A program made the translations under genes and the position numbers. Source: Cricetomys ansorgei (Eukaryota; Chordata; Mammalia; Rodentia; Nesomyidae). From it: a stretch of DNA of 64,000 nt. The notes under the pieces are model-generated. The model saw only the letters and a list, made by a program, of their open reading frames with translations, made no database searches and was not told where the DNA came from. The stretch covers positions 68,426,501 to 68,490,500 of the forward strand of contig JAMJFZ010000199.1 in NCBI GenBank assembly GCA_026225945.1. The letters are read 5' to 3'. Below, piece by piece: positions 36,512 through 64,000 of this stretch. Every line of letters begins with the position of its first letter. Position 1 is the stretch's first letter.

Positions 36512-36579
<68 letters not shown>

Positions 36580-39333: not shown

Positions 39334-39419
39334 CGGCCAGTGCTACACGCCACACAAAAACTGATGCAGGCGGCTGAAGGGGAAGGATCCTTTCCGTTTG
39401 CAGGGTGAACTTGGGAATC

Positions 39420-42890: not shown

Positions 42891-43139
42891 AAAATTTACA
42901 AAACCATACATCAAAATGAGTGAACTTAAAATGCAAGCAAAACTCACTTGGGCAAATCTGTTAATAAAGAAGCAAGCCAGACAGGAGAGGTAGCTATCTG
43001 CAGTGCGCATGTGTGTGCACGTGTATGTGTGAGTGCATGTGTGTGAATGCACATGACAACATGCAAACATATATGTACAAGTAGTACGTGTAACCTCACA
43101 ATATATAGGATAAATAATTTAGATTTAGAACTTCTAAAG

Positions 43140-43505: not shown

Positions 43506-46009
43506 ATGATAGCTGGACACAGTCGGGGAGGAGGTCTGATGGAAAGGGAGAGGTAAGGAAACAAAATCAAAACCTCACCACAGGTGAGTGCACTGAGTGT
43601 GGTGTGCCTGTGAATGCACTATTGATTCAGTATCAGAAAGAAGTACAGACTCAACATGAATGAGCCTCATGAGCTTGGCGTGTTCACAGAAACAGCATGG
43701 CGCCTGCTCCCTGGCTTTCCTAAATGGACACTGGTGAACGAATCAAAGGGGCAGTCCTCTCGTACTCGGTATAGCGACTGAGAGAGGGGAAATGAGGGTT
43801 CTTCCGGGGAAAACCTGGAGGTGGAGATGGACTCGACCACGTGAAAGATTAAGCGTTCCCACCATCAACACCTTAGCATTGAGATTCCCACGCCTGTTCA
43901 ACTTGAAAACAGGTGACTAGAAATGACTATTGTCATCCTTGCCCATGTGCTTGTTGAGAAGGAGATGGAGTGGGTGGAGAATAACCAAGCATTGACAACT
44001 GCAGACGCCACCAGAAGGACAGGGGGGACTCATTGCACAGTTCTGTTTCTTTCTATAACTTCCAAGTTTTATGCTTTAAACAGTTATAATCTTAATCACC
44101 TACCAGGTCCCAGACATACACTTCCCTTTCTGTTATCTCATTATATCTTCCTGTGAGGCAAGCTCATCATGCAGATGGAGAGAACAGAATAGCTGCCATT
44201 ATTTGGCTAAGGAGCCCTGATGTCCCTCCCCTTTGTCCCTACTGCCCCCATGCAAATGAAGGGCTCAGTACCAGGGACTCAGACCAAGGAGAAGGTACAA
44301 CACATGAGAGAAAAGTAGTGACGAGGTGTCCTGGGGTAGAGTGGATGGGCAGGCAGTGCACTTCCCCAGAACTGACCTCCCTGTTATCCCTCTAGCCTGA
44401 GTTTACACCTGGAAAAGGCAGGCAGGGCCTGCTCTCTTCCTCCAGAGCCTGGCATCCCCAATCTACACCCAGTAATATGCTTAGCTTCTGTTGCCCTGTG
44501 AAATGTGGGGAGGGCTGTCCCTGAAGACCAGTGTCCCTGGAGAGTAGAGTCATAGAAAAGCCATCACTTGTGGCTACGGGGCAGGTGTGTAGCTTCCTCC
44601 ACAACACCCCAAGGCCCTGCACAGTGGGAGAACGGAGCCTCAAGGAGAAAAATGTTGGGATTATTTGGTGTGCACCACCAGGGTTGGCTCCCTGTATGTT
44701 TCATAACCAATTTCTTCTTTAAGGAAAAAGTCCTCCAGGCCACAGAACACCCTCACCACCAAAACTCGGTTTTGTGAGTTTCCTAGGGGGACAAGTGGCA
44801 GCTCCTGGAGCTGAGGAGCTGCTAGGGCAACTGCTCTCTAGAAACCGGGCACAGGGCATCCTGGCTCGTCTCACTGGTTCTGTCTTTGCAGTAACTGATT
44901 AGGAAGAACTAACTGTAGGAACAGAATCTCTTGTGGGAACCACTTCTAATGCAGTGATCAAAAGGGTTCCAGCACCCTAGGAAGATACTGTCTCTGCTTA
45001 GAGACAAGCATGGGCTTGGCCAACACCTCTGACCTCACCCAAATCTCTGCTCAGTGACCTGTAGCATTGGAACAGGATGCGAGTGCAGGGATTGGCTGAG
45101 AAGGGGGAATGAAGGCCTGGACAAAGCATGCACTGTAAAGCCAAAGGGTGGTCGGATCCAGGAATCGCACCCCCTGAGAGATAAGGCAGCCCAGAGCCTG
45201 TTAAGGTGTCCATCCAGGTTCACAGGAGGCAAAGCCCCATCAGAACTGGGGTGAAAATACGTTGGATATTGTAAATCCATGTTTGATTCCTCTGTAAGGC
45301 ATATACACAGCCTCTTATGAAGCGGGAACCAGGGCCATGTTCTTTCTGGTGGGGGTAGAGGTGGGAAATCTTACGTGTGTTTAGTTCACTGTATGTTTCT
45401 CACTGCATGACATCCTCGTGGGAGCCCAGAGGAGGAGCTGCGATCAGGACTCAGCAAACACTCTGCCCTCGTGCCTGTCGCACAGCAGCCTGCCCTCCTC
45501 TGACTACTAGCACAGGCCCCAGCACTCTCTGCATATAGCATGCCCTCAAATAAGCCTGGGGATCCAATCAAACTGGAGAGTCCTTAACAAGAAAGGGATG
45601 TCATTGGTAGGAGAAAAAGCTTGAAAGGATTCTAATCCATTTCTCCGTTATCTGAAATTTGAGTTCTTATCCAGCCCGCGTGAGAGCCCACGTTCCTGTT
45701 ATCAGGGCCGACAGCCACCTGAGAGCAGCATGTTTTGATGACCTGGGCTGAGTAGCAAATTTTTGCAAAGAGAGGAAGAAAGAATCTAAAACATCTCATT
45801 AGACAGCAGTGCATCTTGCAAGGAGGAAGGCACGCTGAATTGCTGGTGACTCAAGGCTTCCTCCACACAATGGAACCCCATCGGTGCTTGCCTGGCGCTG
45901 GCAGATTTGAGACAGCCCCAGCCCCAGAGCTCAAACAGACAGGGCATTCTCATCTCCCAAATAACAAAGGCAGGTGAAAGAGGGACCCATCAGCACAGCC
46001 TGATATTTC
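43506..46009. other. Unique intron
   Basis: One MIR fragment at 44095-44205; a MIR/L2-like word near 45505-45560. No gene. Confidence 0.5.
44095..44205 (-). mobile_element. MIR SINE fragment, reverse
   Basis: gttatctcattatatcttcc and tgaggcaagctcatcatgc, followed by agatggagagaacaga, match reverse MIR. Confidence 0.6.
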
Positions 46010-46265
46010 TGTGCATTTTAACAATCTAATTAACATTACAGCCGTGACAGATGCGTGAAAGGGGCCGAGACGCTAAGGATTACTGAGTATTGGATTTGAA
46101 AATACCGCTTCAAATAGCCCAGCCCTTGACTAAATGCCATTAATTTGTATTTTTTGTTTACCCGATATTCAGATTAATTTTCCTGCTTAAAAAAATTGCA
46201 AAGGATAAGCCATTCACACGCACATACTTTTATTTTAAAAAAGAAATCTAAATGTTCTTATAGCT
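46010..46265. other. Unique TAAT-rich intronic segment, candidate conserved element
   Basis: It holds tctaattaacatta, gccattaatttg and cagattaattttc in unique sequence. Candidate enhancer by composition only. Confidence 0.35.
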
Positions 46266-46359
46266 CAAGACTACAAAATTATATATTTTCAGCTAAGTCC
46301 ACATAGACCGGAGGTTTTAACAAGAATGTCCACTGCTGTGGAGGAAAGGGAATGAGTGT

Positions 46360-46720
46360 ATTCAGGCACAGCTGGTGGTGCTGGCTAGGGACGGCTCTTC
46401 AGGAAAGCAATGTGACAGCAGGTACCCAAGGACTTGAGATGTTTGGAACTTCTGACTAAGCCATTATACCTCTGAGAATACTCAGAAGACAATCTGGAAT
46501 TGAGTCAAGATATTTCCACTGGGGCGAACTGTGTTTATCACAACAGAGTTTATAAAAATTAGTGAGAAAGGGAACAGTAGCTGAAAGCCCCACATTTGAG
46601 AGAAGAAAAAAAGAAGGTGTAGATTGTTCTCATGACAATTACAGTGAGGATGAATGTCAAATGAAACAAAGAAATATGGCCATCCACAGGAGACAAAAAA
46701 CAGAACAGCATTTATATCAC
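46360..46720 (+). mobile_element. Ancient LINE-1 tail fragment
   Basis: gctggtggtgctggctaggg, caggaaagcaatgtgacagc and cattatacctctgagaat, then tttatcacaacagagtttat, follow old L1 ORF2-tail order. Confidence 0.55.
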
Positions 46721-49429
46721 AGTGAGCTTGAAAAAGCTGGACTCTGCCCTGGGAAGGCAAGCCTTGCGTTGTACCCACTGTAAGATCTTGCAAACCGCTT
46801 CCCTCTCTGGTCTTCCATTTCTGCAGGAGGCAGACAGGGAAAGAGCCACCATAAGGACTATTTTCACCAAAATCCTGGAATGATACCTACAGTGGAATCC
46901 ATACTCCAAAGTGTGTAGTAAAAAAAAGTATACAGACATGCAAAACCATGGCTGTTTTTGTGTTTTGTTTTGTCTTCCTCCAACATGTTTTAATATCTTC
47001 TATACAAAACACGTTACGCTGCTGTAATAGAGATGGATCTAACAAAGTGGAGATGTTATCAGATGGGACCCAGCTGTTCTTAATCCACAGGTAAGAGCTA
47101 CTTCCATGACATCTGTGCTGAGGATGGCCCTCATCTGGTTAAGTGGCTTCTGCGTTGCTAGAGATTAATACCCAAACTCCGCACAAAGCATAGGGCCTGT
47201 ATCCAAGACCTAGCCCTAAACCTGTCTTTCCAGAGGGCCAGCATCAAACAGGGAGGTGGCATCAGTGTGAGCTGTGCCTACTCCCAGGGCAGAGCTGCTC
47301 TCCCTTGCAGATCAGATGAAGTCGCCAAGACCCTTAGCAGTGAGCAGTGACTAACACACCTTATCGATGGCCACAAGATACATCTGTCTGTGCATCCTGG
47401 TTCTGGGATCAAAACTTTAGAGGATGAGATACCCAACATCCTTTCCTGCCTTGGTGAGGTTTATCAAGCACCAGAAAGCGTCACACATAGAACTAAGCTG
47501 GCCTAGCACCTTCTATTTCATCCCGTGTAAAGCATCCTGGAAGCAGGCATGTCATGACTCTCGTCCCAGAGGAAGGAAACTGGTATGTGGGGTGGTATGC
47601 AAACTTCTCCAGCATGAAGGCTGGAGTGGCAGCTAGGGTGAGCCCAGAGCCTGGGTCTTGGCCCATCACTCTGCTAACTCTCTACCTGGGTTGTCTGTGG
47701 CCAAAGCACTTGGTGTAGGTGTCGATATAGATGTAGATGTAGCATACTGAGGTGTCACTACAGACACAGAAAGGGAAAGCTATATCCCATCCTTGGTGGG
47801 TGGAACACTCTCTAGGGAACAGCAGAGACCATGTGACTAAGACTCCAAGCACCCAAGGGCCTACTTCCAGCAATGCGATGCCACACATGACTGTGTCACA
47901 CGTTGCAACACCACACATGATTGTGTCACACAATGGGTTCTCTTCATGGTTTTGTGTATAGAAAAAAAAATGCTGTCAAAATAACAACCACCACCACCTT
48001 GGAACCCCTGGAGTAAAAAAGACAAATTTCAACCTTTTCTATGTTTATCATATGGATAAAACATCTCTTTTTAATGCAGAAGAATGTCTTCCTTAAAGGA
48101 GAAGCACCAAATGCTCTCTTGAATAGAGAAAGATGCAGGGACAGGTGCTGGACCCAAGTGTGAGCACTCTGGATGCCAGCAGAGGCGTGTGGAGATTTGG
48201 ATTCCAGTAGATTACCCATCTGCTATTTCAAAGAAAGCGTCTTGCTCTTGTTCTGCCCTACCCCCAGCTGCCACTCACAGAGGGAAGGGCCACACTATTG
48301 ACCACAAGCAGGTCTGCCTCCATCCTTCCAAGAGCGCTGTGAGCTGGTACACTTGGCTGACCATACTCTGATGCTGTGCGCCAGGGTGAAGCCAGGATCT
48401 TCAGCATACTACCTATCCATCCCCCATCCGCCATGAAATCTGGGCCTTCCTTCTGGCAAAGCCTGGCAGGACTCTCTTCTAGGTCCAAGGCCTTGAAATT
48501 TTCATCCCCCACTTCTCCTCCTCTTGGGACCTTTGGCACCTCTTAGAAGGGAAGGACAGTAGAAAGGAGATGGTACTGAAGATGGTCAGGCTTCAGGACA
48601 CTCGGCTAAGAGGATGGGCGTGGCTTTCCCTGACTGAAGAGTAAAGCAGCCTACTGCCACACCTTCCCTCTAAGAAAATACAGATGGACTGGAAACAGCT
48701 AGCCATGGCTGAGGTCGTGAGTCACGGAGGGATGTGGCACAGGTGGAAGACACAAGTTCGAGGAACAAGGAAGAGGTGGGGAGGGGGAGGAGAGGCAGTG
48801 GACATCAGCTCAGAGTGGATGACCAAACGGCCTCTCTCTCCTGGTCAGGAAGAGCTACCCCTCAGAGCCTTCTTGGAGAACTCAATAGAAGCCACTCTTA
48901 GGTCTCACCTTCCCTTGAACCCTGTTCCCCAATGCTGGGTGGCTCCCAGTCTCTCCCGTGCTTAACAGTTTCCAGGCATACACCACCCACCTAACGCATG
49001 TGGTCCCCTCCACATCCAACCCCTCCAGCCAGTGTCTCCTCTGTTCTTTGCTGTGGAACCTTCTATGGCCAGAGAGCTCCTGTGGATTCCCAACACAGCC
49101 ACCCAACAGGGCCTGTGCTCTTGCCCACAGCCAACAATGGCTCTTCTGGCTTTTCTTCTAGCACCTGTAGGAACTCTCTGCCTGCTTCCCTGCTCACACA
49201 GTGGCTTCTCCTCAGACTGCTGCATCATCTCGGTCTCCTGGGCCCAGCCTACTTGGCCTAGGCCAGGTGCCCATTGTTCTCCATCTGCCCCCATCACATC
49301 CCCTGGCTGTACCATTCCACTCTTCCCTGCCCACCCACAGCATCACACCATAGACTCAAGAGCAAGCACGCCATTCAGGGTCTTCTGTGACTTCCCCAAT
49401 ATGCAAGCCTTGACTTCCCAGCTTCTTTG
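46721..49429. other. Unique intron
   Basis: Minisatellite at 47870-47940. GC-rich open frames near 48.9-49.4 kb show no family or splice support. Confidence 0.5.
47870..47940. repeat. Two-copy 30-bp minisatellite
   Basis: ccacacatgactgtgtcaca at 47881 recurs at 47911 with one change over 21 bp. Confidence 0.85.
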
Positions 49430-49740
49430 AGAATGCCAGGACCCGTGTAATGCCTGGGCCCTTGCACAGCTGTCATTTCTGCCTGGGAGATTTATGCTCA
49501 ACTGTCCTAGTGAAACTAGGCCTTGGCGGAGCTACGTGCCTACCTCTCTTCCTGGAATGCTGTGCTTGGCAATCACTTTCCTGTGTTTGTTCACCCTCAT
49601 CACTTTCCCTCTCCCACTAAGCTAGCTGAGAGTCTGTGATCACAGGATTCTGTTTGTCTTGAACATCGAGTTCCATGCTCAATGCCTCAAAACCTGGCAC
49701 ACGGCGGTCACCAGTTACCATTCGGTGGCTCATTCATTGT
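49430..49740 (+). mobile_element. L2-like fragment
   Basis: tcttcctggaatgctgtgct, cactttccctctcccacta, tagctgagagtctgtgatca and aaaacctggcacacggcggt resemble the L2 3' region. Confidence 0.55.
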
Positions 49741-50383
49741 ATAGGAAACGCAGAAATTTGCCCCCTAACAGGCAGCTGCCCTCAAACAAAAGCGCTCTTA
49801 GCGATAATTGAATGGGCACTTAGAGGGCTGTGTTTGCTAGGAACCGCCAGCTCCTCGCTCAGGCACACGGGTAACCGCACACAGGGTAACAGCTTGGCCT
49901 CTCTACCTATATTCTGAGTCTGTCTCCTTTATTTTGGGTCACCTGGCAGGCAGGTCAGCATGTTAGCATTTGAGTGTCTGTCTAATCTATCTCAGCCCTT
50001 TTCGAGACTGAAGGCACAGAGATAGATCATTGCCCTAAACCTGCAGTCACACAGCCTCAGAGGACAGACTACCCACCAACCAGGGCAGCTGTCCACAAGG
50101 GCAAGGCTGCACTGGAGAACAGGAACACCTGCTGAAGACCAGTTTGTCCCAGCAGCGATAAGGACTTCAGACCATATCTCAGGACCTGACCTGAAACAGG
50201 CATGGAAGGAACACTGTTTAATTTACCTCTTGCCTCTGTTTAAATCAAAAGTTCACGTCAATACCACAAAGACAGACTTGGGGATCACTGGACCTCTTGG
50301 TCTGCTCCTCTTCCCAATATGGTCACACTGAATACACCTCTCTGCTTTTCACTATCATTTGTGTCTTTAATCGGCCTATTAGA
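49741..50383. other. Unique intron
   Basis: Nothing recognised. Confidence 0.55.
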
Positions 50384-50394
50384 AGAGATGACCA

Positions 50395-50606
50395 TGCTGG
50401 GTGGGGTGGTGCACTCCTTTGATCCCAGCACTCCCAAAGCAGAGCAGAGGCAGGCAGATCTCTGAGTGTGAGGCCAGCCTGGTCTACAGAGCAAGATCCA
50501 GGATAGCCAGGGCTACACAGAGAAACCCTGTCTCAAAAACCACCAAAGAGAGAGAGAGAGAGAGACAGAGAAAGAGAGAGAGAGAGAGAGGCAGAGAGAG
50601 AGAGAG
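50395..50606 (+). mobile_element. B1 SINE with GA-rich tail and target-site duplication
   Basis: The B1 body ends gaaaccctgtctcaaaaacc and then has a GA-rich tail. The word agagatgacca occurs at 50384-50394 and again at 50607-50617, a target-site duplication, so the GA microsatellite grew from the B1 tail. Confidence 0.9.
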
Positions 50607-50885
50607 AGAGATGACCAAGCCTAGCCTGTTGGGACTTCTGCAGCCTTTTCCTCTAAAATTCCAGTTACAGTAAGATTCACACACTCAGAAAGATTAGCAA
50701 CCTCACGAATGGACACATATGCTAAGGGCAGGCTGTGAGTGCCTCTTCACTAAGAAAGGAGGCCAGAGATCTTGTGAAATCATGAATTCAGAACGCCATC
50801 AATGTCATAGCAGAGACAAGGTGAGGTAGAAGGGAGGAAGATGGGAAGAGCAGCCTTGTTTTTCCAAATAAGAATTAATTTGGGG

Positions 50886-51125
50886 TTGGGGAGCTGGCGA
50901 GACAGCTCCATGGTTAAGATGGTTTAGAGCGCATATTCTAGCAGGGGACCTGAGTTCTGGAGTTTGGTTCTCAGCACTCAGCTCAGGCAGCTTATAACTA
51001 TAACATCAGTCCCGGGGGGATCCAATGCCTCTGACCTCCTCAGGCACTTATACTCACATGCACATATTCATATATAGATAGACATACAGACAGACACACA
51101 CATTTTTTTAAAAAATACAATAAAT
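50886..51125 (+). mobile_element. B3/B2-type SINE
   Basis: The tRNA-like start ggggagctggcgagacagc is followed by ggacctgagttctgg, then a gatccaatgcctctgacc segment, a CA/TA tail and A-rich end. Confidence 0.75.
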
Positions 51126-51145
51126 ATATTCTTTTAAAGATTTAA

Positions 51146-51645
51146 CCAAGGGATTGGGGAGATTGAGTTCAGACAGCAAGGTGCCTTTGCTGCACGAAGA
51201 CTTGAGCTCAATTCCCAGTACCCAGAAAAAAAAAAAACAAACAGATGTTGGTAGCAGTGCTTGTAATCTCTGCACTAGAGAGCCAGAGATAGGCCAACGC
51301 CTAGGGCTAGCCTCGGATCCCAGTGAGCAACCCTGACTCGGGGGGCGGGGGAGACACTGTCTCAGCAGGTAAAGGCATTTGGTGCCACACCTAATGACCT
51401 GAATTCCATCCGTGGAGCACACATGGTGGCGGGAGAAAAAGGACCTCCCCATAGGCAAAGCACACATGCACCGTGCACAAATGTGCCCACACATACATGA
51501 CATAATAACAGCTAAAAAAATTTAATAGGGGATGGTATCTGAGGAAGATACCCGAGGCTCACATATACTTGTGCATACATGCATGTACGCCTGTACGCGC
51601 GCATGTGCATGCACGTGCGCGCACACACACACCCCTATCCATTAC
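51146..51645 (+). mobile_element. RSINE1/B4 SINE split by a B3-type SINE
   Basis: The B4 head runs 51146-51355 (ggattggggagattgag through gagccagagataggcc). A B2/B3-type segment follows at about 51360-51525 (tctcagcaggtaaaggcat, cacacatggtggcgggag). The B4 tail resumes at about 51530-51645 (ctgaggaagatacccgag plus an alternating purine-pyrimidine tail). The younger element appears inserted in the older one. Confidence 0.7.
51582..51632. repeat. Alternating purine-pyrimidine tract
   Basis: Nearly unbroken R-Y alternation with cgcgc and gtgcatgcac, ending in CA repeats. It is a strong Z-DNA candidate and near-palindromic. It forms the tail of the B4 element. Confidence 0.8.
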
Positions 51646-51959
51646 CTGGAACACTGAAACACATGGTTAAATTATGAAGCGTAACTATGGTACTTCTTTG
51701 GGCTCTTCCCTCTTTCTTCACCTTCAGACCTCCTCACAGGGAATGATTTTTCTCGTAAATAAACACACCAGAAGTGCAACTGGCCCATAAATTTTACTAC
51801 CAGTCTTTCTCCTTGGTTATATTGAGGTAAAAGTACCTTGTAAACTTTTATTTAAATGAATATGGCTTGACATCACACTGTGGCCGACATAATGGTAATA
51901 ACTGTTGTCCCTGAGAACTAGGGTTGGTTGCTTTCTTCTGTTTGTCTTTCTCTAGGGCT

Positions 51960-52745
51960 CATATTTTTTATTATTTTTGATAGGCATACAAGGATAACAG
52001 ACTTATGAGATACAAGGCAATGTTTGGGTTCAAACAAACATTCAGCAAGGATCAGAGACTTGGCACCTCCATCACCCTGGGTTCCTGCTGCATCGAACTT
52101 CCAGTCCCTGCTTCTGATTACTCTGAGAGACACCGCATTATTCTTAGCAATGTCGACCCTATCGTGTGACCTATTTCTCCTAATTGTAACTTCTCAGCTG
52201 TCAGCTTATTCCAGTGCCGTGACCACCACAATCTACCCTCCATGCTGTGAGATCAACTTTAGAATCCACATACAAGTGAGATCATGCAGTGTTTGTCAGT
52301 CTATGCCTGGCTGACTGCACATAACACAGTGTAAACCAGATCCTCGATATCACACATGCCAGGATTATACGCTCTTCATTGGCTGCATAGTATTCCACTG
52401 TGTGCATATTACACAGGACGCTTATCCTGTGAGGAACATTTAGGTTGCTTTCACACCAGGCCTTTGTGAACAGTGCTGTGACCAGCACAGGTGTGCAGGT
52501 ATCTCCTTCATGTTCAAGTTTCCTTTGGGCGTGCACCTGCTGGATCATAAAGTAGTTCTATTTTTAGTTTTGCACAACAACCACAGTAATGCACTTCCCA
52601 GCCACAGTGTAAGGAGCACCCTTAGCATTCTTGCCAGCATCTCTGACATCTTGTCATTGATGATGGCCATTCTGATGGTATGAAAGTTGTCTTCCCACAA
52701 TTTTGACTCACACCTCCTTGAGGACTAGTGAGGTTCAGCATTTAA
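51960..52745 (+). mobile_element. Ancient LINE-1 3' region
   Basis: tatttttgataggcatacaa, acaagtgagatcatgcagtg, gctgcatagtattccactgt and gaacagtgctgtgaccag occur in the old L1 3' order. Confidence 0.75.
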
Positions 52746-53774
52746 AAACAGAAACCCTGTAACAACAGTGCACCCACCACACCCCACCCCACCCCGCACC
52801 CCTGGTCAATGGCAAGTAAATCCTCTCTGCACTATGGTGGCACAGCTGCCAAGTTCAGTGTTTTTCCTCCTGCTGACTCGGCCTAACTCAGAAGCCACTT
52901 GCTCCCCACTGCCTTCTCTGATACAGCCCCTGGCTAGTGCTTCACCTCTTCCCTCCACATCAAGCTCCCTAGGTCAAAACTCAGAGCTCATATGGCATTC
53001 AGGAGACCAGGTGCTCTTCAGGGGCCAGAAAGGCCTGGGGTGCACCATATACCAGGGCACACAGCAATCAGACCCACAATGTGTCAGTGACATGTATAAA
53101 TAGTCCCACTCAGTGGAATTGAGGTGCACCCTAACTGGCCTCCTGTGGGTGTCTGTCAGGCTGCATGGAAGGAGCTTGATACTATATCCACAGTGAAGCC
53201 TTTTTCCTGGGAGCTTTCTGTGTTTAGAACAAGCAAAGACTGTGGTGTCAGAGCTGCCTTCAGATCTGCTCCCTAGGGAGGCTGAGCAACTAGGAACAAA
53301 ATAGATAACTGAGTGACATAGTGGACCTGCACACAAGAGGAATTCAATGTGTGATGGACAAGGAGGCCAGGAGACTTGAGACCTCATACTTAGAAACATA
53401 CCCCGTTATACCATCAGGCCAGGACAGGGAAACTACTGTTCAGCACTGGTACCCACACAGGTTGGCAGGGTTTGAAGTCCACCACGCACTGCTGTATGAA
53501 CATTGGTTCTGCCCTGTACACCACATCCGTATCAGCACTCTGCTGCCTGCCCCCTTCAGCATCTCTGACAGCAGGTTTCCTGCTGGGGTGACATCTGCTC
53601 AGAGCCAAGGCAAGGGGCTCATGGGGTGGTTCTGTGTTGACAGTAAACCTACTGCTGCTGTTGCTGCTGCTTTTCTTCTTGTCTTCTCTTTTCTTCTTCT
53701 TCATCTTCTTTTCTTCTTCTCCTGTTCCTTCTCCTTCTTCTTTTGCCTGACATTAAACAGCTGACACTTTAAAT

Positions 53775-53831
<57 letters not shown>

Positions 53832-55382
53832 CTTCATGATTTTATCTCTGCTGGCTGCATCACCAGGTGACTCATTTCCAGTTACTCCAGGAGACCAGGG
53901 GATTGGAGTTAATCCAAATAATTCCTTGTTTATGGGACATCCAGGCTGTGCAAGCCCAGTACTAGGACCCTTGCACGCTTCATCACTGGTCCTGAAAACT
54001 GCCATTCCCCTTCTTCAGGTGACCTGTTCTCCCCCAAAGCAAAAGGTACCAGATCAGTCCAAGCCAGGGTGGGCAAACGAACATGGTCCCACTGACCCCA
54101 GGCTACACACAGTAGCGACCCCGTGCCCACAAGGAGATGGCTAGTCAGGGACAGAGCACAGGAGATTCTGTTCCTAGAACAGACTGAACTTGTATGACTG
54201 TTATAGAGACACACAGACTGGGTTCTAGGAGAAGGAATGGTCAGGGCCTAAAACACCAAAGCCCAGCCTATAGGGGCTGGCAGATACTCTGAACAGAGAA
54301 AGAGAAGGACCCCTGAGCAGGAGAGCAAATCCTAGCAAATGCTAGATAGGAGTCAAGCCCATTTTCCATGAAAAACTGATCCAGATGAAATTTAAGCCCA
54401 CAGCCAGGCAATTCATCTCCCTTACCCATAACCCATCCATCCATACTAGGCTCTCCCCTTCCTGTCCCTTGCTCCCCATGGTTCCCTAGAAAACCTGCCT
54501 CCTGTGTCAGCTGTGGCTGGCTTCTCTACACTTTCTCTATCCCAGGGCTGAACTGGGGCCTGATATGCATAAATCCCTAACAGAAGTAAGAGATGGCCAG
54601 GGGAAGGATGGACCAACTGCTGTGATTCTTCCATGCTCTTGGGGGAGACTGATGAAGGCCTCCAGAGCCCCAGATACATTCCAGCACTGCCAGGAGAGGT
54701 GGCTCCCGTGCAACAACTCTGCGCACCACACCCAGATGAGTAGCCACTCTGATGCCTCTACTTTTGGGGTGCCAAAATCTTACTGCCAGAGGTGTTTCCT
54801 ACAGAAACCACAAGGTTCTCCTGGAGAAGTGATATGGCCTCCTCATCAAGAAGTTAGGAGGAGAGAGAGCTAATATTGGGGAAAATAATTAACTGTAGTG
54901 ATCTAGATAAGAACCCAGATGAAAGACATAGAAAGTGGGGGTGGGGCACAGTGACAGCACCGGGCCTCTGAAGTTGGCTTCAAAGGCTTCTGATCTGCTA
55001 TTCTGCCCAGAGTGACAAAAATAACAGAACTGAAAACTCAGGGCTAGAACTGCCCCACCCAGCAGTCTCAGTCAACTGCCAGTGACTAGGGAAAAAATCC
55101 TAGCTCAGCTTCCAAGGCTTTCCAAGGCACTGCCCCATCCCACTTCTGATGACCCACCTCCAGCCAGCCCTACGATCCTATCCCAGAACCCTGACCAGCC
55201 CCAATTCAGGTCTCCATGGCTCCCACAACCCAGAGCCTTCTTTCCTGCTGGCCAGCTCTAGACTTTCCACACAGCTTCTCCCCACGACACTCACGGAAGC
55301 TTCCATTGATGGAACACACACTCTGCCTACAGGCAGCACCCAATTTCCATGGCCTTCAGAATTTGGAGCTCTCTGTGCACTC
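52746..55382. other. Unique intron
   Basis: Short CCCCA tract at 52771-52800 and the pyrimidine/CA tract at 53650-53827. No gene. Confidence 0.5.
53650..53827. repeat. CTG/CTT pyrimidine tract followed by (CA)n
   Basis: A CTG-rich start and TTC/CTT-rich tract to about 53745, a gap, then about 25 CA units at 53777-53827. Confidence 0.93.
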
Positions 55383-55475
55383 CTTTTCTTATTTTACAAA
55401 GGAGGAAAGTGCCATCAGAAGGGGGTTCAAGTGACCTACCTACCAGCTAGTGAATCCAGAACCAGGGGCCATCTG
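55383..55475 (-). mobile_element. MIR SINE fragment, reverse
   Basis: tcttattttacaaaggagga, aagtgacctacctaccagct and agtgaatccagaaccagggg are the reverse MIR core. Confidence 0.72.
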
Positions 55476-55655
55476 TGCTCAAATCACCCCCTTTTCTGGT
55501 CCCTTCCTGCTGTGCATTGCAACTGAAGGTACCACTGCCTAAGTACGGCTAAAAACTAAGGAGGGGAGAATCTCAAAGCAGGTTTATCTGTGAGTGGTGG
55601 GATCAGCGGAGAGGTTTGGCAGACCTCTGGCCCTCCCGTGATTCGTGATACGCCT

Positions 55656-55830
55656 ACAGTGCAGGGTTAAGAGGATGGACTGTGAGTCAGAATGCTCCAG
55701 AGTGGTGGCTCTGCGGCTCAGCAGCCGTGAGAACCTGGACTACTCGAGTCCCTTACCAATCCGCCCAATGACAGTATCCGTTACTTCATGATTACAACAG
55801 AAGCGGCACTTGGCACACAGACTGAGCTTC
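55656..55830 (+). mobile_element. MIR SINE
   Basis: ttaagaggatggactgtgag, tcagaatgctccagagtgg, tggctctgcggctcagc and gtgagaacctggactactcg follow the MIR 5' half and core. Confidence 0.72.
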
Positions 55831-57818
55831 AGTCCTCACTGCTGTGTCCTGTGAGAATCCCCACTCATGGGTCAACACCAACTTGTGCACACACCACACT
55901 CAGTTCTCTACCAAGTCTGAACCAACCGAGCCCCTCTGGAATCTGGGATGGTGACCTACTCCTAGCTCTCTTCTAGCACGCATCTCTGATTACACATCCC
56001 CTGCAGGTGGGTTCCTTGCCGGAGGGTACCACTGAGTTCCCAGCAGACTTGGTTATCAATCATGTCCTGCTTGTCCAATCTTGGGGAGGGCAAGTGATGT
56101 CCAGCAATTGTGCCCTCCATGACAAACACTTCAGATTCAACAGAGAGAAGTAAGGCCAGAGACAGGAGCCCTCGGTGGATCATGTGTGAAGCTGAGAGAC
56201 ATGTGAAGGTCACACCAGGACCTCGTGAGATGGGCAGAGATGGAATGAATCCCAAGACATGGGCGCCTGCCTGAGGATACCATGAGGCTAGGATTAAAAA
56301 CCAATTGCAGCTGCCAGTCTGAGTTCCCCGGTCCTTTTTCAGCCATATGTTCTTGCTTGCAGATTTTCCCTCAGGCACGCACTTACAAAAACTATGAAGA
56401 GCCCTCTGGAGCATCCCAGCTAGCCATGGCAAGTTCTAAAATGAGCTTCTGTGTTCCTTTCACCCCATGAAAGGCTCAGGAGCCAAGAGATAGCCCCACA
56501 TGGCCTTTCTCCATTGCCACCATGAGATGCTCTGCCTAACACTCTCTTGACCACCTATTCCCTGGGAATCCGCTTGCACTTCTGAGCTTAGACCTACTGC
56601 ATTCCTGACACAAGACCAGTGAGAGGCGCAGTTTCCTGACAAGCGCACCTGCAGGGGGCTGACCATCCATGTAAGATGGGGGACAGTCACCTTCCACTCC
56701 AGGAATGACTAAGCTCATACCTGGGTTTCCACCAACGTTATCAGTCAGCCCAGTCGGCATGTTTGGATGCAAAGGCGTGAGCAGGTCAGGTTGACTCCTG
56801 AGGCCATGAAATAGCACTCTGTACCACACTTAGTACCCTCGTGGCTCCCATCCACCACCACTCAGGTTGGACACAACCAAAGAATGGGTTAGAAAGGGAA
56901 ACGCAGAGCCTTGAATACCAGTTAGCAAGACACTGGACACCACCCTCTTTACTCTGAACTGAAGCGGTCAACATGGTGGGTACCAGCCGATGGCCCAGCA
57001 GGTATGTGGGAAGGAACAGGAAAATCACAAAAGTAGAGCTCAGCCAGTGGGGGAGGGAGCCCTTAAGAACAAGGACCTTGTTAACAAGCAAGCCTGTGCA
57101 TTCTACCAAGGGGCTGAAGCTTGGCCCACAGGACGGCGATCAGCGCCATGACTCCATGTACAGCCTATCTCTAGCCCCAAAGCCTGGTGGGTGGCGGCTT
57201 TCTACATCTCCTGGGTTTTAGTCCCCACCAGCCCCAGCCTCACAAACTGGGCTCATGAATCTTCACCAGCTCCCTGTCAAGCTATCACATGAGGACATCT
57301 TTCACTCATGGTAGGCACCTTAACAGAAGCTGACAGGTGACCAACAGACGCACAGCCCTAAGCACAGCATTTAAACAGGCTCCGCTGGAGTCAGACTGCC
57401 GGAAGCCCAATCTAGTGCTCACCTCACAATGGAGGTCTTCTCTTTTGAGATGCCAAACTCCTATGTCCCTTTTCATAGTTGTACATCATGCTATACACAC
57501 AGGCAGCAAGGACATCATGAGCATTAGAGACATGATCTACCTGCAGTTGTCTGACGGGAGGCCTAAGCAGCTCTTCGACACGAGGAACACACATAAACGC
57601 TAACTCCGGGTAGTAAACTGACCCAACGAGGTGACAGTCTCTAAATATGCATCTGTCAGCCTCCCAGCTAATGATATGAAGAACTTCCTTGGGTTGGGAC
57701 TGAGAGCAGCCACCCATGTGTACTAGAATGAGACTCTTTCACCTTTGCAACCAGCTCTATGTGAGACTGGCCAGAAACCGGTGAGTGGTTGAAATCTTGA
57801 AGCAGATATACAATTAAG
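55831..57818. other. Unique intron
   Basis: Nothing recognised. If Peg13 is transcribed leftward from the CpG island, part of its exon could reach here. Confidence 0.45.
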
Positions 57819-57832
57819 AATTGCATCTTGAG

Positions 57833-58062
57833 GGCCAGATAATGGCGAAGCCTGTAAAGTGCTTGCCCAAGAAGCAGGAGGACCCGAGTTCAATCCCCAA
57901 AATCCACAGGAAAAAAAAAAGCTGGATACGGCAGCATGTACATATAATCTCAGTACTAGAGAGGCAGCTATGGGAGGATCCTCAGGGGGCTCCCTGGCCA
58001 GCCTTGTCGCCACGGGCACACTCACATGCACGCACACGTGCACATGCACACACACAGCACAC
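57833..58062 (+). mobile_element. RSINE1/B4 SINE
   Basis: Head agataatggcgaagcctgta, then ggaggacccgagttcaatcc, a B1-like middle and a CA-rich tail. The flanks aattgcatcttgag (57819-57832) and aactgcatcttcag (58063-58076) match at 12 of 14, a decayed target-site duplication. Confidence 0.85.
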
Positions 58063-58269
58063 AACTGCATCTTCAGCAAGCAACAGTTCACAAAGACAGC
58101 AAGTTGGAGCAATACGGGAGGTGAGAAAGGAGCAGGAGGTCACACTCCTCCTAAGCGCAGTGTGGGTCTCTGGCCTCCAGACAAGACCCAGGGAAAACGC
58201 CCTGCCCCATAGTGCAGGGAAGAACCTAACCTCCAAATAACTTCCCCATGCTCCTCAGGAGGCACACTC

Positions 58270-59320
58270 ACAAAATTTATTTATTGAAGATACAATATAA
58301 CAAACACTTAGAACACGTCAAGGAACCAAACACAGGCCCCTCCACCGGAAGCTTACCTTAAGCAAGAGAGAAAGACCACAAGCAAAAGACAGTATTATAA
58401 GCATATTGTGTGGTGTGAGAAAGTCGGGGAACCGGAACGGGGTGCTGGGAGAAAGGGTGCAGCTGTAATACATGCTTGCTGCTGCACTGACGAGGATATA
58501 CAGCAAAGACCTGATGGAGGGGAGGAGGCAGCCTCATAGCTACCTTGGGAAAAGCATCTCAGGAGGGTTTCCACAGAGACAATAAGGGGGACATGTACCC
58601 ATATATCCCTTCAACCTATTTGGCTCGGAGTAGCTAGAGCTGAGTGCCAGAGATAGGGAAGGAGTAGGATTCAATGTGGGGGCAGGAGGAGGAACTGGGG
58701 ACAGGCCAGAAACAGCTTTCCAGGCCATTGTAAGGACTGTGGGTTTTTATTGAGTAGCTAGAGGCACAGCTGGGAAGTCTCACTTTGGTTTGGATGGGAT
58801 TACACTGAGATCTATAAACAGACTATTAGGGAAAACACTGGAAACTAGTTAGGGAGCTGTGGCAGCCCATCCAACTTAATTGTCCTGGAAGGGAGGAACG
58901 TGGCTGCCATGCATGCCTTTGCACTGTGTTAACAAGGTTATAGTCCAGCAAAGACCAGGGGAGTGGAGGAGGCAGCCTTGTAGCTATCTGGGGGAAAGCA
59001 CTTCAGAAGGAATAGCTTTCACAAAGATAATAAAATGAGCGTGTACACGTCTATTCCTTAAACCTGTTCAGCGAGGTTGGGATACGGATAGTGCCAGAGG
59101 GAGAGAAGGGATGTTAAAGGCACCAGGGTAGGGGTGGAGGTGGGGTAGGAGTGGGGGTGGGGGTGAATTCGAAGCTGCTGGACAGTGGGTGCATTAAGGA
59201 GGCAGAGAAAGCAGAAGTCACTAGAGTATTAAGCATAAAGGGTAAAGAGAAGAGTTAAACGTGATTCCAAGATAGCCAGTCTGAGCGACTGGAAGTTGGA
59301 GTTCCTGTTTTCGGATCCTG
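58270..59320 (+). mobile_element. Ancient mammal-wide repeat with an internal local duplication
   Basis: Phrases such as tccaggccattgtaaggact, gggtttttattgagt and gattccaagatagccagtct followed by gagcgactgg resemble a widespread old mammalian repeat; I do not recall its name. Two segments, about 58446-58686 and 58896-59117, align with each other at an offset of about 445 bp (both contain cagcaaagacc, then gaggaggcagcc). Confidence 0.5.
59126..59164 (+). other. G-rich tract with quadruplex potential
   Basis: Several runs of three to five G occur within 39 bp, with short linkers containing T, A and single bases. It sits within 0.5 kb left of the tandem array. Confidence 0.6.
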
Positions 59321-59649
59321 AGAAAACTGGAGTGGAACCTGGTCGAGTTCTAAAGTGACTGGGTACAGGAGAGGATCTGCACGCTGGAGAGCAGGCTTGT
59401 CCGAACCCTTGGAGTCCCAGCAATGCAGAAGTCTCCTCCTCCAGTCAGTACTGAAAGCCATGAGTGCTCGGCAGGGCAAAGAGGACTGGGCAGCTCCCAT
59501 TGGAGGGAACCCAGAACCTCACTGCTTATAAGCAGCAGCTACCACCGTGAACTCAAGATAATAAAAAAAAAAAAAACAATGCCTCCCAGATTCTCCCCGA
59601 GTGAGATGATCAAGACTGCTGTTATCCTCAGGGTTTGACGGGAGACCTG
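59321..59649. other. Unique intron between old repeat and tandem array
   Basis: Apart from an A-run near 59560-59576, nothing is recognised. The array boundary is gradual and was placed by eye. Confidence 0.5.
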
Positions 59650-62619
59650 TTGCAATACAAAGAGAATCACTGTCCAGCCACAATCCGATGAATGCGTTTG
59701 GCAGGGTTAGAAAACCTGCCTGGGTCTTCAGTAAACACCTCAAAGTAAACCACTCTTCGCTGGGTAAGAATACCCAACCAGTTCCTTGGAGCTGTAGCAT
59801 CCATGCTAAAATCCACAGCATGAAGAGAGCCAACTGGTTTATGGATCTGCAGGTTCCCTGTGCCACCATCCGCTGTGGGCATCAACACAGGAACTCAGTG
59901 CACAGCTACTGCTATTCACACTCAGCTCCATTCTGCCCCAGCAGCCATGCAAGGACATCTGCCCAGCCACTCCCACACGGCCATGAGCAGCATGAAGACC
60001 CCAGCTGGATGATCAGTGTGTAGCTCTGCAGTTTCATCACCATCTTCAGGGCAAGGACACCTGCCAAAGTGATCAATTGGTGACGCTCACAACCATCTGC
60101 AAGGTAATGACATCAGACTATGCTATTCCCTTGTAAGATAAGGATTGCTGGCCAGGTCCTCGCTCCACCATTGAACACAGGGTAAAACCATCCACCAGCA
60201 TCCTTGGTGTTCATTCAAAGCAGTGCTGCTGTCACAGAGAACAGAAATCCACCTACATTTTCAATGGGATGCAACATGGTTTCCTGAGAGCACAGAAGCC
60301 CTCATGGTTCCTCTGGATGTAGTAGCAACCAGACAGAAACTTGGCTGGGTTTGTACACACCTTCTCTGTGCCGCCCAAGTCCTCTTGGTGCCTATGACAC
60401 CAGTACAGCTTCCTGGAAGGTGAGATGCCCTACTGGGTTATCATCACCTAGTGCAAAACTGTATAGACCCCAGAGCGAAGATGTCGTCCCTCCATCTTGA
60501 GGGTAGCTGTGCCAATGCAGCTTCTCAGTCACGTATAGTAAGCTCCACAGAGTGACCATCTGCAGTGTAGAAACACTAAGCCAGACTTTGGATGCCTGAA
60601 TGCAGCTGTGACACAGTCTGTGTGGCTACAGAGCCTGTCCAGGTCCTCAGCATGCCACCCCGAGCGGCTATCCACAGGGCAGAGACTTCGCTGGGTTATA
60701 TCGCAGCCCTCAAAACAAAGGCATCCACCCAGCTCCCTGCTGTGAGGCGTTCTGTGGAAGTAGACTGCCCTGATCCTCACGTACAAATGCATCTGTGACA
60801 CAGGTTGGAGGGTTGGAAAGCCCACCCAGGTTCTTAGAGCATGGCCCCAAGAATGCAACTATTCACAGAATTAAGAGCAATCCAGTGGATTGCCAGCACA
60901 GGGCTCCATGGTGACACGGTGCACAAAGCTGAGGTCGTCCATCCAGATTCCAGCTGTGCCTCCGCCTACATACAGATCTGCCCAGATCCTGGGTGTGCAA
61001 ATGTAGCTGTGACACAGCCTTACAGAACCCAGATCTTAATGCGCAGCTGCAACAATTACAATTATCAGGGTGAGGGCGCTCTGCTGTACCACCATCCCCA
61101 ACATAAGGATATCTGCTACATTCTTAGTGCGCAGATGCCACAATGCGACAGTGAGAGGATGATTTTCGCTGTACCACCAGCTCCAGAAAAACATCAGCCC
61201 GGATCCTTAATGCCCAGCCACTGCACTGCATATATCCACATGGTAAGGGTGCTCGGTCGTCCCACCATCCTCAACCTTAGTGGGCATCTGTGGCCAAAAG
61301 CTGCCCGTTAGTTCTAAACACTCCACTATACCTCCATCCCCAGGATTAGATCCTCTTCGATCCGTAGAACACAGCCACCACGCTGCAGCTGCCCACAGAG
61401 AAAGCAAGGAAGGACGTTCCACAGTGCCCCTCGCCCTAGGACAAAAATCAGCCCAGCTCTTTAGTGTGCAGCAGTCGTGATGCGATTAAGAGCAGCAGGG
61501 CAAAGACACTCGAAAACAACACCATCCCCAGGATAAGATCCTCTTAGACCTTTCAAAAACGCAGCTGCCATGACGCAGTTATCCACAAGGTAAGGGCGTT
61601 CTGCTGTACCAACATCCCCAGGATAAGATCCACTCGGGCATTTGATGCGCAGGCATCCCCAAGGTAGTACCGACTCGGTTAAGCCACCATCCACAAAAAA
61701 AAGGACATCCACTTAATTCCTTAGTGCGCAAGCAGCGGCGCTCTGGAGTTATCTGTGCACAGCTCTGCTGCGCCACCATTCGCGGGAGAAAAAAAATACC
61801 ACGCAGAACATTAGTGCGCCACCAAAACCATTCAAGCTCTCCACACCGTAAGGACGCTATGCTGGATATCCGCGTCTGGTTCCGCTGTGCCTCTATCCTC
61901 CGGGTAAGGACATCCGTTCAGTCATTGAAGTGTAGCCATAAATATGTGTAGTTCCCCAGGATTAAGATGACAAACAGCTGTGCAGGTGTTGGCTGGGTAA
62001 GAGCATACGCCCAAGTCCCAGCCAAAGGGCTGGAAAGCCTCCCTTGATCATCATTGTGTGACGACCACAGCGCTCCGATCCACAGGGTGAGGGCGAGCCT
62101 GTGTACCAGCGTCTCCAGGGTGAAAAGATCGGCCAAGCTCCCGGTCGCATGGCAAGCTCCAGGGTCCTGAGCTCTCAATTTCCTCAGAGCCGCCCACGCA
62201 CGTGCTGCACCAACACAGGCATACGGGTTTCTTCTGCGCCGCCTCCTGCCCATTTCTCGATTCCATCGGTGCGAGAGATCTCAAGCTAAAGACTCGCGGC
62301 TCCGCAGTTTTGTGCCGCAGCTCTTCGACCCAATCTTCCTCAGGGTAAAGGGCTCAGATCTTCCCGGAGAGCCGCAGCGCTGTGCAGATACATACTAACT
62401 CAGGAGCTCAGCTGGGCTATCACACACACTCTAGCATCGCAATAGGGTATGATAAGGACAGCCACTAGATTGTCCTCGGTTCGTGGCCGCAGAGCCGTGG
62501 TAAAGCGGTCCGCTCAGCTCCAAGCCGTGCCGCAGTCTGCAGAGTCGGAGACGTCTGCCGCGGTCTGGTGCGCAGGCAGCTGTGACGCAGTCTGCAGGGC
62601 GAGCCAGCCCAGATCTCAG

Positions 62620-62630
62620 TGCGCAGGCGC
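62620..62630 (-). promoter_or_regulatory. NRF1-type motif
   Basis: TGCGCAGGCGC is the reverse complement of GCGCCTGCGCA, a standard NRF1 binding form. It recurs identically at 62898-62908. NRF1 binds CpG-island promoters and is methylation sensitive, which would suit an allele-specifically methylated promoter. Binding is not shown by sequence alone. Confidence 0.6.
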
Positions 62631-62667
62631 GGCAATGCGGCAGTCTGCAGGGTAGGGACACGTTCTG

Positions 62668-62683
62668 TGGCGCCATCTACCGG
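62668..62683 (-). promoter_or_regulatory. Candidate CTCF or YY1 site
   Basis: The sequence tggcgccatctaccgg fits a degenerate reverse CTCF core (GCGCC-nYCT-RnYGG). Its AGATGGCG complement is the YY1 core octamer. Both factors are known at imprinted DMRs and both are methylation sensitive. A weight-matrix score would be needed to choose. Confidence 0.45.
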
Positions 62684-62897
62684 ATGAGAGAGAGAGTCCA
62701 GGTCCTCGGTGCGCGGGCACAGAAGCCGGCAGTCCACACTGAGGCCACACAGGTTATCAGCGCCACTCCACGGTGCCAGCATCTTCAGGGTATCGGTGCG
62801 TGGCCGCGCTGCGCAGAGGTCTGCAGTCGAGAGACGCTCCTTCGGCAGGGAAGGTTATCGCCGCGGCAGTCGCAGCTAAGCGGCCAGTCCGTCTCAG

Positions 62898-62908
62898 TGC
62901 GCAGGCGC
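62898..62908 (-). promoter_or_regulatory. NRF1-type motif, second copy
   Basis: Identical TGCGCAGGCGC in the second well-preserved array unit. Weaker relatives such as tgcgcagctgc, tgcgcagatgcc and tgcgcaagcagc occur in older units. Confidence 0.6.
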
Positions 62909-62945
62909 GGCAATGCGGCATTCCGCGAGGTAAGAACACGTTCTG

Positions 62946-62961
62946 GGACGCCATCTAGCGG
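62946..62961 (-). promoter_or_regulatory. Candidate CTCF or YY1 site, second copy
   Basis: The sequence ggacgccatctagcgg repeats the motif of 62668-62683, with the same CGCCATCT octamer and a tagcgg end closer to the CTCF form. Confidence 0.45.
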
Positions 62962-63042
62962 TTCGGAATGATGGCCCGCGTTCTTGGTGAGGGAGCACAG
63001 AGTCCCTGAGACAAGAGCCTTCTCCACTGGTGATCGGCGTGT

Positions 63043-63061
63043 GCCCCCTCCCCCCCCCCCC
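63043..63061. repeat. C-rich tract
   Basis: gccccctc is followed by a run of about 13 C, between the array core and the inverted repeat. It is prone to length variation. Confidence 0.85.
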
Positions 63062-63094
63062 GGCAGCATCTACGTGGTGTCCCACAGGGTGGAG

Positions 63095-63138
63095 ACCCTC
63101 ATCCTAAGGATGCCCTGCTAGGTCCTCAGGATGAGGGT
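63095..63138. repeat. Inverted repeat, 16-bp arms
   Basis: Arms at 63095-63110 and 63123-63138 pair at 15 of 16 positions, with a 12-nt loop. The arms include the array word aggatgagggt in both orientations. This sits at the CpG-poor right flank of the array. Confidence 0.75.
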
Positions 63139-63604
63139 GTCCATGCAGTAAGGGTACCACACAAATGAATGCCCCACTGAGTATACAGGGTGAGGGTGTC
63201 CAAGTATGCAAGTATGCGGTAACATTCAGCATTAGCAAACCGAAGGTACGAAGCCGGATCCGCCGCGGAGCAACGGGAACATCAGGCCCTGCCCACAGCT
63301 CTCCCTTCTTGTCCCCTCTTTCAGGGGATTCGGTCTCCTTTGCTGTAGTGCACACTCACTCTGGGGCGCCATGGACTATGCTTTTGCAGCGTAACCTGGC
63401 CGGTGTACCCCTACCCGGCTGCCGAACCAATGCTTTAAACCCCGACTCATGCGCGGTCTGCAGAACCACAAGAGGGACCACGTCCTCAAAGGCGAGCTTC
63501 TGGGATGTATTACGGGGAAGGCCTAGCAACGGGGTTTCCGAGAGGCTCACCAGAGGGCAATCTGTGACGCACTAATAATTTCTAACCAAAAGATAACATT
63601 TAAG

Positions 63605-63616
63605 AGCGCCATCTTT
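63605..63616 (-). promoter_or_regulatory. Candidate YY1 site
   Basis: Read on the minus strand, this is AAAGATGGCGCT, close to the YY1 consensus AANATGGCGNC. It lies at the right border of the CpG island, outside the tandem array. Confidence 0.5.
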
Positions 63617-63660
63617 TTCTATTTCTATATAGTCCAGCAATGAAGCGTCTTATGGCGGGG

Positions 63661-64000
63661 AAGCTGTAAGACAAAGTATTTTTCATCTTATTTGTTGACC
63701 GCGCTGGGGAATCATACCGGAGACTTTGGTGCCATTAGAGATGCCCCCCGCCCCGCGAAGAGCCCCTGTGTCCTGGATGTGCTGGCTTATTCTTCGGTAT
63801 TCATGGAGGAGGACCTGTTGTTAGTCGGGTTTACACATGAGGAAACAGAAGCTAGGGATGGTAGCAGAACCTTCGGGCAATAAATTGGGTGTGTATTTCA
63901 TGGTTCTGTCTGTTTCCTTTTCTGATGTGTGTGGGTGTGGGGGTAATTTTATGTGACTATGTAAGGAGAGACTTGGGGCCTGTAACAATAATTGTTGGGC
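63661..64000. other. Right flank of CpG island
   Basis: CpG drops after about 63660, with a small patch at 63700-63765. Around 63825-63870, acatgaggaaacagaagcta resembles a reverse MIR fragment. AATAAA at 63879-63884 is followed by GT-rich sequence at 63926-63950, so a plus-strand poly(A) site is possible but weak. Confidence 0.4.

What the first reader, a model, noticed from the sequence alone, without database searches (positions are those of the whole stretch)
59650..63660. Candidate Peg13 imprinting control region in the TRAPPC9 intron
A CpG island grown out of a decayed tandem array lies in the TRAPPC9 intron upstream of the exon at 9194-9336. Peg13 is known to sit in this part of Trappc9/TRAPPC9, with a maternally methylated tandem-repeat DMR that binds CTCF-cohesin and blocks enhancers. 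The sequence shows location, repetition and CpG density; the imprinting role is inference.
Basis: partly seen in the sequence, partly recalled or inferred. Interest (0 to 1): 0.92.

Follow-up and report, generated by a model that had tools for sequence, protein, structure and literature searches.

The report
Rodent Peg13 imprinting control island
A CpG-rich island built on an old tandem repeat sits in intron 17 of a rodent TRAPPC9 gene, the same intron as mouse Peg13, and matches published primers for the mouse Peg13 control region; it would likely keep one parent's copy silent and so set which parental copy of neighbouring brain genes is used.

Summary
A 2.6-kb CpG island (61294-63901) overlaps a decayed tandem array (about 59.7-63.0 kb, spacing near 88 bp) and is the largest island in 264 kb of contiguous DNA. 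Mouse Peg13-DMR bisulfite primers from a paper align colinearly to 62408-62776 better than anywhere else in 264 kb (17.9; best of 100 shuffled sets 15.4). The island holds 8 of 17 ZFP57-type 7-mers, the second-best CTCF match and 2 of 3 NRF1-type sites of those 264 kb; most sit in a 110-bp cassette present twice. So this is most likely a rodent Peg13 promoter and imprinting control region: a new member of a known kind. Maternal methylation, CTCF binding and the Peg13 transcript are predicted, not shown. Kcnk9, Chrac1 and Ago2 were not placed; the genome search machine was busy.

The parts
9194..9336 (-). TRAPPC9 exon 18 (codons 951-997 of the 1246-aa form plus two bases; starts at c.2851), end of the host intron
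   Evidence: translation and splice sites; 95.7% identity to a recalled human TRAPPC9; numbering from published variants
9337..64000 (-). 3' part of TRAPPC9 intron 17, 137,903 bp in all; its 5' end lies outside the window, exon 17 being at extended coordinates about 147240-147364
   Evidence: tblastn on window plus L002-L021
59701..63001 (.). decayed tandem array, spacing near 88 bp with sub-spacing near 53 bp; 23 cores of 48 nt found by profile at 59701-62712, and a further 110-bp copy at 62892-63001
61294..63901 (.). CpG island, predicted Peg13 promoter and germline DMR
62408..62776 (+). stretch colinear with mouse Peg13-DMR1 and DMR2 amplicon primers (the reverse primer of DMR2 matches weakly, 19 of 28)
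   Evidence: primers from PMC6981138
62313..62920 (.). cluster of 8 ZFP57-type TGCCGC sites
   Evidence: 0 of 200 shuffles reach 8; 8 of 17 7-mers in 264 kb; enrichment per CpG, odds ratio 21.7, p 1.3e-7
62614..62723 (.). cassette copy 1: NRF1-type site 62621-62630, ZFP57-type sites 62629 and 62637, CTCF-type site 62668-62686 (minus strand, 16.6 bits)
62892..63001 (.). cassette copy 2, 78% identical to copy 1, with the same order of sites: NRF1-type 62899-62908, ZFP57-type 62907 and 62915, CTCF-type 62946-62964 (minus strand, 11.6 bits)
58276..63241 (-). predicted extent of the unspliced Peg13 transcript: start about 62.95-63.24 kb, AATAAA signals at 58746 and 58276
   Evidence: inference from mouse amplicon position +195 to +833, mouse length 4.7 kb and direction, hexamer scan

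Best explanation
The island at 61294-63901 lies in TRAPPC9 intron 17 and matches mouse Peg13-DMR primer sequences, so it is most likely this rodent's Peg13 promoter and imprinting control region. Inferred working: the island would be methylated in the oocyte, probably because host-gene transcription passes through it. ZFP57 bound to the methylated TGCCGC sites would keep that mark on the maternal copy after fertilisation. On the unmethylated paternal copy NRF1 would help start Peg13, an unspliced RNA running in the host direction through the repeat array, and CTCF would bind the cassette sites and, with cohesin, hold a loop that keeps the shared brain enhancer working for Peg13 rather than for Kcnk9. 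Shown here: location, primer-level match to mouse, island, array, and the motif clusters. Not shown: methylation, binding, transcription, allelic bias.
For: Intron identity: exons 14-18 located in order on the minus strand at 187.6, 183.2, 169.1, 147.4 and 9.3 kb with no codon gap between them. Published exon numbers fit: V764 exon 14, H806 exon 15, a splice mutation before exon 18, which I read as the c.2851-2A>C; R1035 exon 19 (exon 19 itself was not located). The exon here starts at c.2851 exactly. Mouse homology: best chain of four Peg13-DMR primers in 264 kb, both strands, is at 62561, score 17.87, against a maximum of 15.40 in 100 shuffled sets and, on the window, 17.82 against 14.94 in 300 sets and 13.2 for reversed primers; the first amplicon spans 176 bp here and 175 bp in mouse. 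Motifs: ZFP57-type 8 of 17 in 264 kb; CTCF 16.6 bits, second of 28 matches above 11 bits in 264 kb; NRF1-type 2 of 3 in 264 kb. Mouse facts from passages: ZFP57 on the maternal allele, CTCF on the paternal, DNMT3L dependence (PMC10869267); same direction as Trappc9 (PMC9596773).
Against: No methylation, ChIP or RNA data for this genome. The mouse comparison rests on about 106 primer bases read with C and T equated, not on the full mouse sequence. Taken singly only the middle primer stands above the 95% point of its shuffles (21 against 20, maximum 21); the DMR1 forward and DMR2 sequencing primers tie with other places in the window and do not, and the DMR2 reverse and DMR1 sequencing primers do not match convincingly. 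The third-best CTCF match in the island (63544, 11.4 bits) points the other way, whereas the mouse sites are said to share one orientation. Island CTCF enrichment over shuffles is modest (4 sites of 10 bits or more, reached by 2 of 100 shuffles; 1 site of 12 bits or more, reached by 20 of 100). PMC10869267 found enhancer-Kcnk9 contacts on both alleles, against a simple blocking model. Motif columns of the two cassette copies are not significantly more alike than the rest (37 of 43 against 49 of 67, p 0.16).
Confidence: 0.9

Rival explanations
1. The island is the Peg13 promoter by descent but has lost imprinting in this species: it is unmethylated on both alleles and acts as an ordinary CpG-island promoter or CTCF boundary.
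For: No methylation data exist here; CpG retention (o/e 0.77) would also follow from lack of methylation in both germlines.
Against: ZFP57-type sites stay clustered (8 of 17 in 264 kb), which an unimprinted island would not need (inference); the Peg13 gDMR is kept between mouse and human (PMC8375499 passage).
Confidence: 0.07
2. The island is a CTCF-bearing intronic repeat unrelated to Peg13 by descent, in the same intron by chance, and the real Peg13 lies elsewhere in intron 17.
For: Human and mouse PEG13 were reported to share no sequence similarity despite the same intron (PMC3986935), so position alone is weak evidence.
Against: The primer chain has its best place in 264 kb here; within the intron the only other stretch over 400 bp passing the island rule is 404 bp with 17 CpG (117652-118055).
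Confidence: 0.02
3. The island is a retrogene or coding CpG island.
For: Several maternally methylated imprinted genes in introns are retrogenes (recalled).
Against: The longest ATG/GTG/TTG frame lying wholly in the island is 136 aa, and frames of 80 aa or more lie on both strands without pattern; no Rfam family reaches its gathering score in the window; the stretch is repeat. No protein-family search was made on these frames.
Confidence: 0.01

Closest known systems
Mouse Peg13 promoter DMR (imprinting control region of the Peg13-Kcnk9 domain)
   Same: Intron 17 of Trappc9, CpG island, colinear primer matches with nearly equal amplicon length (176 against 175 bp); ZFP57-type and CTCF-type sites here where mouse has the bound proteins.
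   Different: The primers differ from the window at several positions, so it is not the same sequence. The island here has 151 CpG in two calls, the mouse one is labelled CpG44 in PMC3986935 (island rules may differ). Methylation and expression not tested here.
Human PEG13-DMR
   Same: Intron 17, CpG island over degenerate tandem repeats, CTCF motifs; human repeats are 4.7 copies of 96 bp and 43.5 copies of 15 bp (PMC3986935).
   Different: Spacing here is near 88 bp; the human sequence was not compared, and human and mouse were reported dissimilar.
H19/Igf2 imprinting control region
   Same: CTCF sites proposed to bind only the unmethylated allele and steer a shared enhancer (comparison drawn in PMC3986935).
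   Different: The H19 region is paternally methylated and intergenic (recalled); this one would be maternally methylated and is intronic. Works-like comparison only.

Membership tests
Peg13/PEG13 DMR (ICR) | lies in intron 17 of TRAPPC9 | tested here: met
   with published exon numbers
Peg13/PEG13 DMR (ICR) | CpG island, the main one of the intron | tested here: met
Peg13/PEG13 DMR (ICR) | sequence homology with mouse Peg13-DMR | tested here: met
   joint primer chain; primers only, not full sequence, and most single primers are not significant alone
Peg13/PEG13 DMR (ICR) | degenerate tandem repeats (human feature) | tested here: met
Peg13/PEG13 DMR (ICR) | CTCF motifs in the DMR | tested here: met
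   recalled JASPAR matrix; 16.6 and 11.6 bits; enrichment over shuffles modest
Peg13/PEG13 DMR (ICR) | CTCF motifs all in one orientation (mouse) | tested here: inconclusive
   62668, 62946 and 62234 on minus; 63544 (11.4 bits) on plus
Peg13/PEG13 DMR (ICR) | ZFP57 bound on the maternal allele (mouse) | tested here: inconclusive
   recalled target motif enriched; binding not testable
Peg13/PEG13 DMR (ICR) | maternal germline methylation, about 50% in somatic tissue | not testable with these tools
   no methylation data
Peg13/PEG13 DMR (ICR) | paternal, unspliced ncRNA of about 4.7 kb in the host direction | not testable with these tools
   no RNA data; AATAAA at 58276 would give 4.7-5.0 kb, which chance could also give
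Peg13/PEG13 DMR (ICR) | neighbours Kcnk9, Chrac1 and Ago2 in the domain | not tested
   KCNK9 search did not complete; Chrac1 and Ago2 were never asked for

The most novel reading that the evidence does not exclude
The rodent Peg13 control region was built by amplifying a short repeat whose unit already carried the makings of an imprinting switch: a one-way CTCF-like core and a ZFP57 hexamer site. Selection then kept two copies as a 110-bp NRF1-ZFP57-CTCF cassette while the other units lost their CpGs by deamination. Imprinting control would thus be a property of a repeat unit rather than of a unique conserved sequence, which would explain why human and mouse PEG13 share place, repeats and CTCF but no alignable sequence.
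Probability: 0.3. Interest if true: 0.68.

Novelty: new member of a known kind. Interest (0 to 1): 0.45.

Why it matters
The Peg13 DMR is thought to control parent-specific use of Kcnk9 in brain; mutations of the maternal KCNK9 allele cause Birk-Barel syndrome. The control region diverges so fast that human and mouse were called dissimilar. A rodent copy that is still recognisable from mouse primers, with its motif-bearing cassette marked out, suggests which parts persist and gives exact places (62614-62723 and 62892-63001) for methylation, CTCF and deletion tests. It also makes it testable whether imprinting control regions arise from tandem repeat units.

Tried and rejected
Tandem Repeats Finder for the array: no call in 59.6-63.6 kb, so the array was shown by k-mer spacing and an iterated profile instead. 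Exon 18 against the PDB and Pfam: no match. Variant residues of exon 18 in print: none found. Exon number: I first took the published codon numbers for 1148-aa numbering, which would have put the island in another intron (15); this was dropped once PMC8068822 showed that NM_031466 is the 1246-aa form and the exon chain agreed. Of 9 residues checked against the recalled protein with a shift of 98, 8 match and one (E689) does not; R475 in that list is recalled, the other 8 are from papers. Human PEG13 sequence: in the passages seen of the last paper allowed (PMC8656495) no primers inside the PEG13 DMR are printed, so no human comparison was made. CTCF core in every repeat unit: the aligned units score well above other array positions (median -1.7 against -17.7 bits), but this is partly circular, since homologous copies of a CTCF site resemble it; only 3 of 20 units exceed 6 bits. 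Deamination of the left half: TG fits, but CA is also 1.47 in 62.0-63.05 kb, so the dinucleotide evidence is partial. Selection on the cassette motifs: not significant. YY1-type site at 63607: 1 site, reached by 9 of 200 shuffles. Rfam at gathering scores: 0 families in the window. 15 papers were opened, none read whole: PMC3986935 as abstract, passages and sections 8 and 9; PMC9596773 as passages and section 12; the others as passages. No supplements were read.
Full report
The observation. The window is from a 2.53-Gb assembly (G000, contig C1096:68426501-68490500). A CpG island fills 61294-63123 and 63137-63901 (116 and 35 CpG; o/e 0.77 and 0.69; window 0.24). No larger stretch passes the same rule in 264 kb. 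The decayed array under it runs from about 59.7 to 63.0 kb: too diverged for Tandem Repeats Finder, but 8-mer pairs at 20-500 bp number 207 against 38 in shuffles, with peaks near 53, 88-92 and 278 bp, and a 48-nt core profile finds 23 copies of 10 bits or more in 264 kb, all there and all on one strand. The left half of the array is CpG-poor (o/e 0.16-0.33) with TG o/e 1.6 against 1.0-1.15 in the island, as expected if those units lost CpGs by deamination while the right units stayed unmethylated in at least one germline (inference). CA does not separate the halves as cleanly: 1.5 on the left, but also 1.47 at 62.0-63.05 kb.

Which intron. The exon at 9194-9336 (minus strand) is 143 bp, phase 0 at its start, and 95.7% identical to a TRAPPC9 stretch that I recalled. 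To number it I used published variants. NM_031466 is the 1246-aa form (PMC8068822 figure legend); c.2288dup/V764 is in exon 14 (PMC9644490), H806 in exon 15 (PMC6396715), a splice site before exon 18 is mutated in TRAPPC9 (PMC4094338), given as c.2851-2A>C in PMC6396715 (that the two are the same variant is my reading), and R1035 is in exon 19 (PMC8683625). After fetching 200 kb upstream, tblastn placed the exons in order: V764 exon at 187.6 kb, H806 exon at 183.2 kb, next 169.1 kb, next 147.4 kb, then the exon at 9.3 kb, which starts at c.2851. So 147.4 kb is exon 17, 9.3 kb is exon 18, and intron 17 is 137,903 bp with the island inside, about 53 kb from exon 18 and 85 kb from exon 17. Mouse Peg13 and human PEG13 are both in intron 17 (PMC3986935; PMC9596773). 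Eight of nine residue checks of the recalled protein agree, E689 does not. Exons 19-23 were not located.

Homology to mouse Peg13. PMC6981138 prints bisulfite primers for two amplicons of the mouse Peg13-DMR, located from +195 to +833 relative to the transcript's 5' end; the reverse primer of the first is the complement of the forward primer of the second, so they adjoin. Read with C and T equated, this shared middle primer has its best match in the whole window at 62561-62585 (21 of 25; 200 shuffles: 95% point 20, maximum 21). The first forward primer matches at 62408 (21 of 29) and the second sequencing primer at 62639 (18 of 24), both on the plus strand; each ties with another place in the window and neither exceeds its shuffles alone. 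The first amplicon would be 176 bp, mouse 175 bp. The DMR1 sequencing primer has no good match here and the DMR2 reverse primer only 19 of 28. A chain score over four pieces at mouse spacing, the DMR1 sequencing primer being left out, peaks at 62561 with 17.82 in the window (300 shuffled sets: maximum 14.94; reversed primers 13.2) and 17.87 in 264 kb on both strands (100 shuffled sets: maximum 15.40). The evidence is thus the joint, colinear placement. I take the mouse sequence as homologous, though only primer letters were compared.

Anatomy of the switch. The consensus motifs here are recalled. TGCCGC sites of ZFP57 type: 8 in the island, against a mean of 2.1 in 200 shuffles with none reaching 8; with the 7-mer form 8 of 17 in 264 kb, odds ratio 21.7 per CpG. 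CTCF-type sites: 62668 (16.6 bits, second of 28 above 11 bits in 264 kb) and 62946 (11.6), both minus; 62234 (10.3, minus); 63544 (11.4, plus). Counts of 10 bits or more in the island are 4, reached by 2 of 100 shuffles, and of 12 bits or more 1, reached by 20 of 100, so enrichment as such is modest. NRF1-type sites at 62621 and 62899, one other in 264 kb. One NRF1-type site, two ZFP57-type sites and one CTCF-type site stand in that order within 110 bp at 62614-62723, and again at 62892-63001, 78% identical, with the first 29 bases identical. The motif columns are not significantly more conserved than the rest (p 0.16). A YY1-type site lies at 63607 (1 site, reached by 9 of 200 shuffles).

How it likely works. 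In mouse ES cells the Peg13 promoter carries ZFP57 and H3K9me3 on the methylated maternal allele and active marks on the paternal one; embryos of Dnmt3l-null mothers lose Kcnk9 expression (PMC10869267 passages); CTCF binds the paternal allele (PMC9596773 and PMC10869267 passages); a human PEG13-DMR fragment blocks an enhancer in an assay (PMC3986935 section 9). Peg13 is unspliced and runs in the Trappc9 direction, here the minus strand. From the amplicon position the start would be near 62.95-63.24 kb and a 4.7-kb RNA would end near 58.3-58.5 kb; AATAAA occurs on that strand at 58746 and 58276 and nowhere else from 56001 to 63700, ATTAAA not at all, which is compatible but weak. I commit to: oocyte methylation by host transcription (recalled general mechanism), ZFP57 upkeep on the maternal copy, NRF1-aided Peg13 start and CTCF-cohesin loop on the paternal copy that favours Peg13 over Kcnk9. 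Each of these steps is inferred for this species. The mouse 4C data show enhancer-Kcnk9 contacts on both alleles, so competition within a loop is likelier than plain blocking (PMC10869267).

Novelty. This is most likely an orthologue of a known control region: new member of a known kind. What I did not find in the passages I read or in the listings is a description of the twice-present NRF1-ZFP57-CTCF cassette or of a roughly 88-bp unit at rodent Peg13; no paper search asked for NRF1 or for the unit itself, those searches cover open-licence PMC papers only, and supplements were not read.

Noticed in passing
window 58516-58566 and 58960-59010: Direct duplicate of 51 nt, 82% identical, 444 bp apart, just left of the array on the side where the predicted Peg13 transcript would end.
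   Followed up: no
L007:3652-4055 (extended coordinates 117652-118055, same intron): Weak 404-bp CpG-rich stretch (17 CpG, o/e 0.61) with a CTCF-type match (13.2 bits, plus) inside it, in intron 17 upstream of the island; a possible distal element.
   Followed up: no
L020:5072-5120 (extended coordinates 249072-249120): Two ZFP57-type 7-mers 17 bp apart and the best CTCF-type match of 264 kb (17.2 bits, minus), between 5' exons of TRAPPC9. Mouse has a CTCF-bound loop partner in the 5' part of Trappc9; whether this is the same place is unknown.
   Followed up: no
L013:3697, L016:6262, L021:8780 (extended coordinates 177697, 210262, 262780): Three CTCF-type matches of 14.6-16.3 bits with nearly the same letters, which recall of B2 repeats suggests are SINE-borne.
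   Followed up: no
window 52500-55900: As many short repeated words as the array (210 8-mer pairs against 46 in shuffles), in part probably from the microsatellites at 53670-53827.
   Followed up: partly
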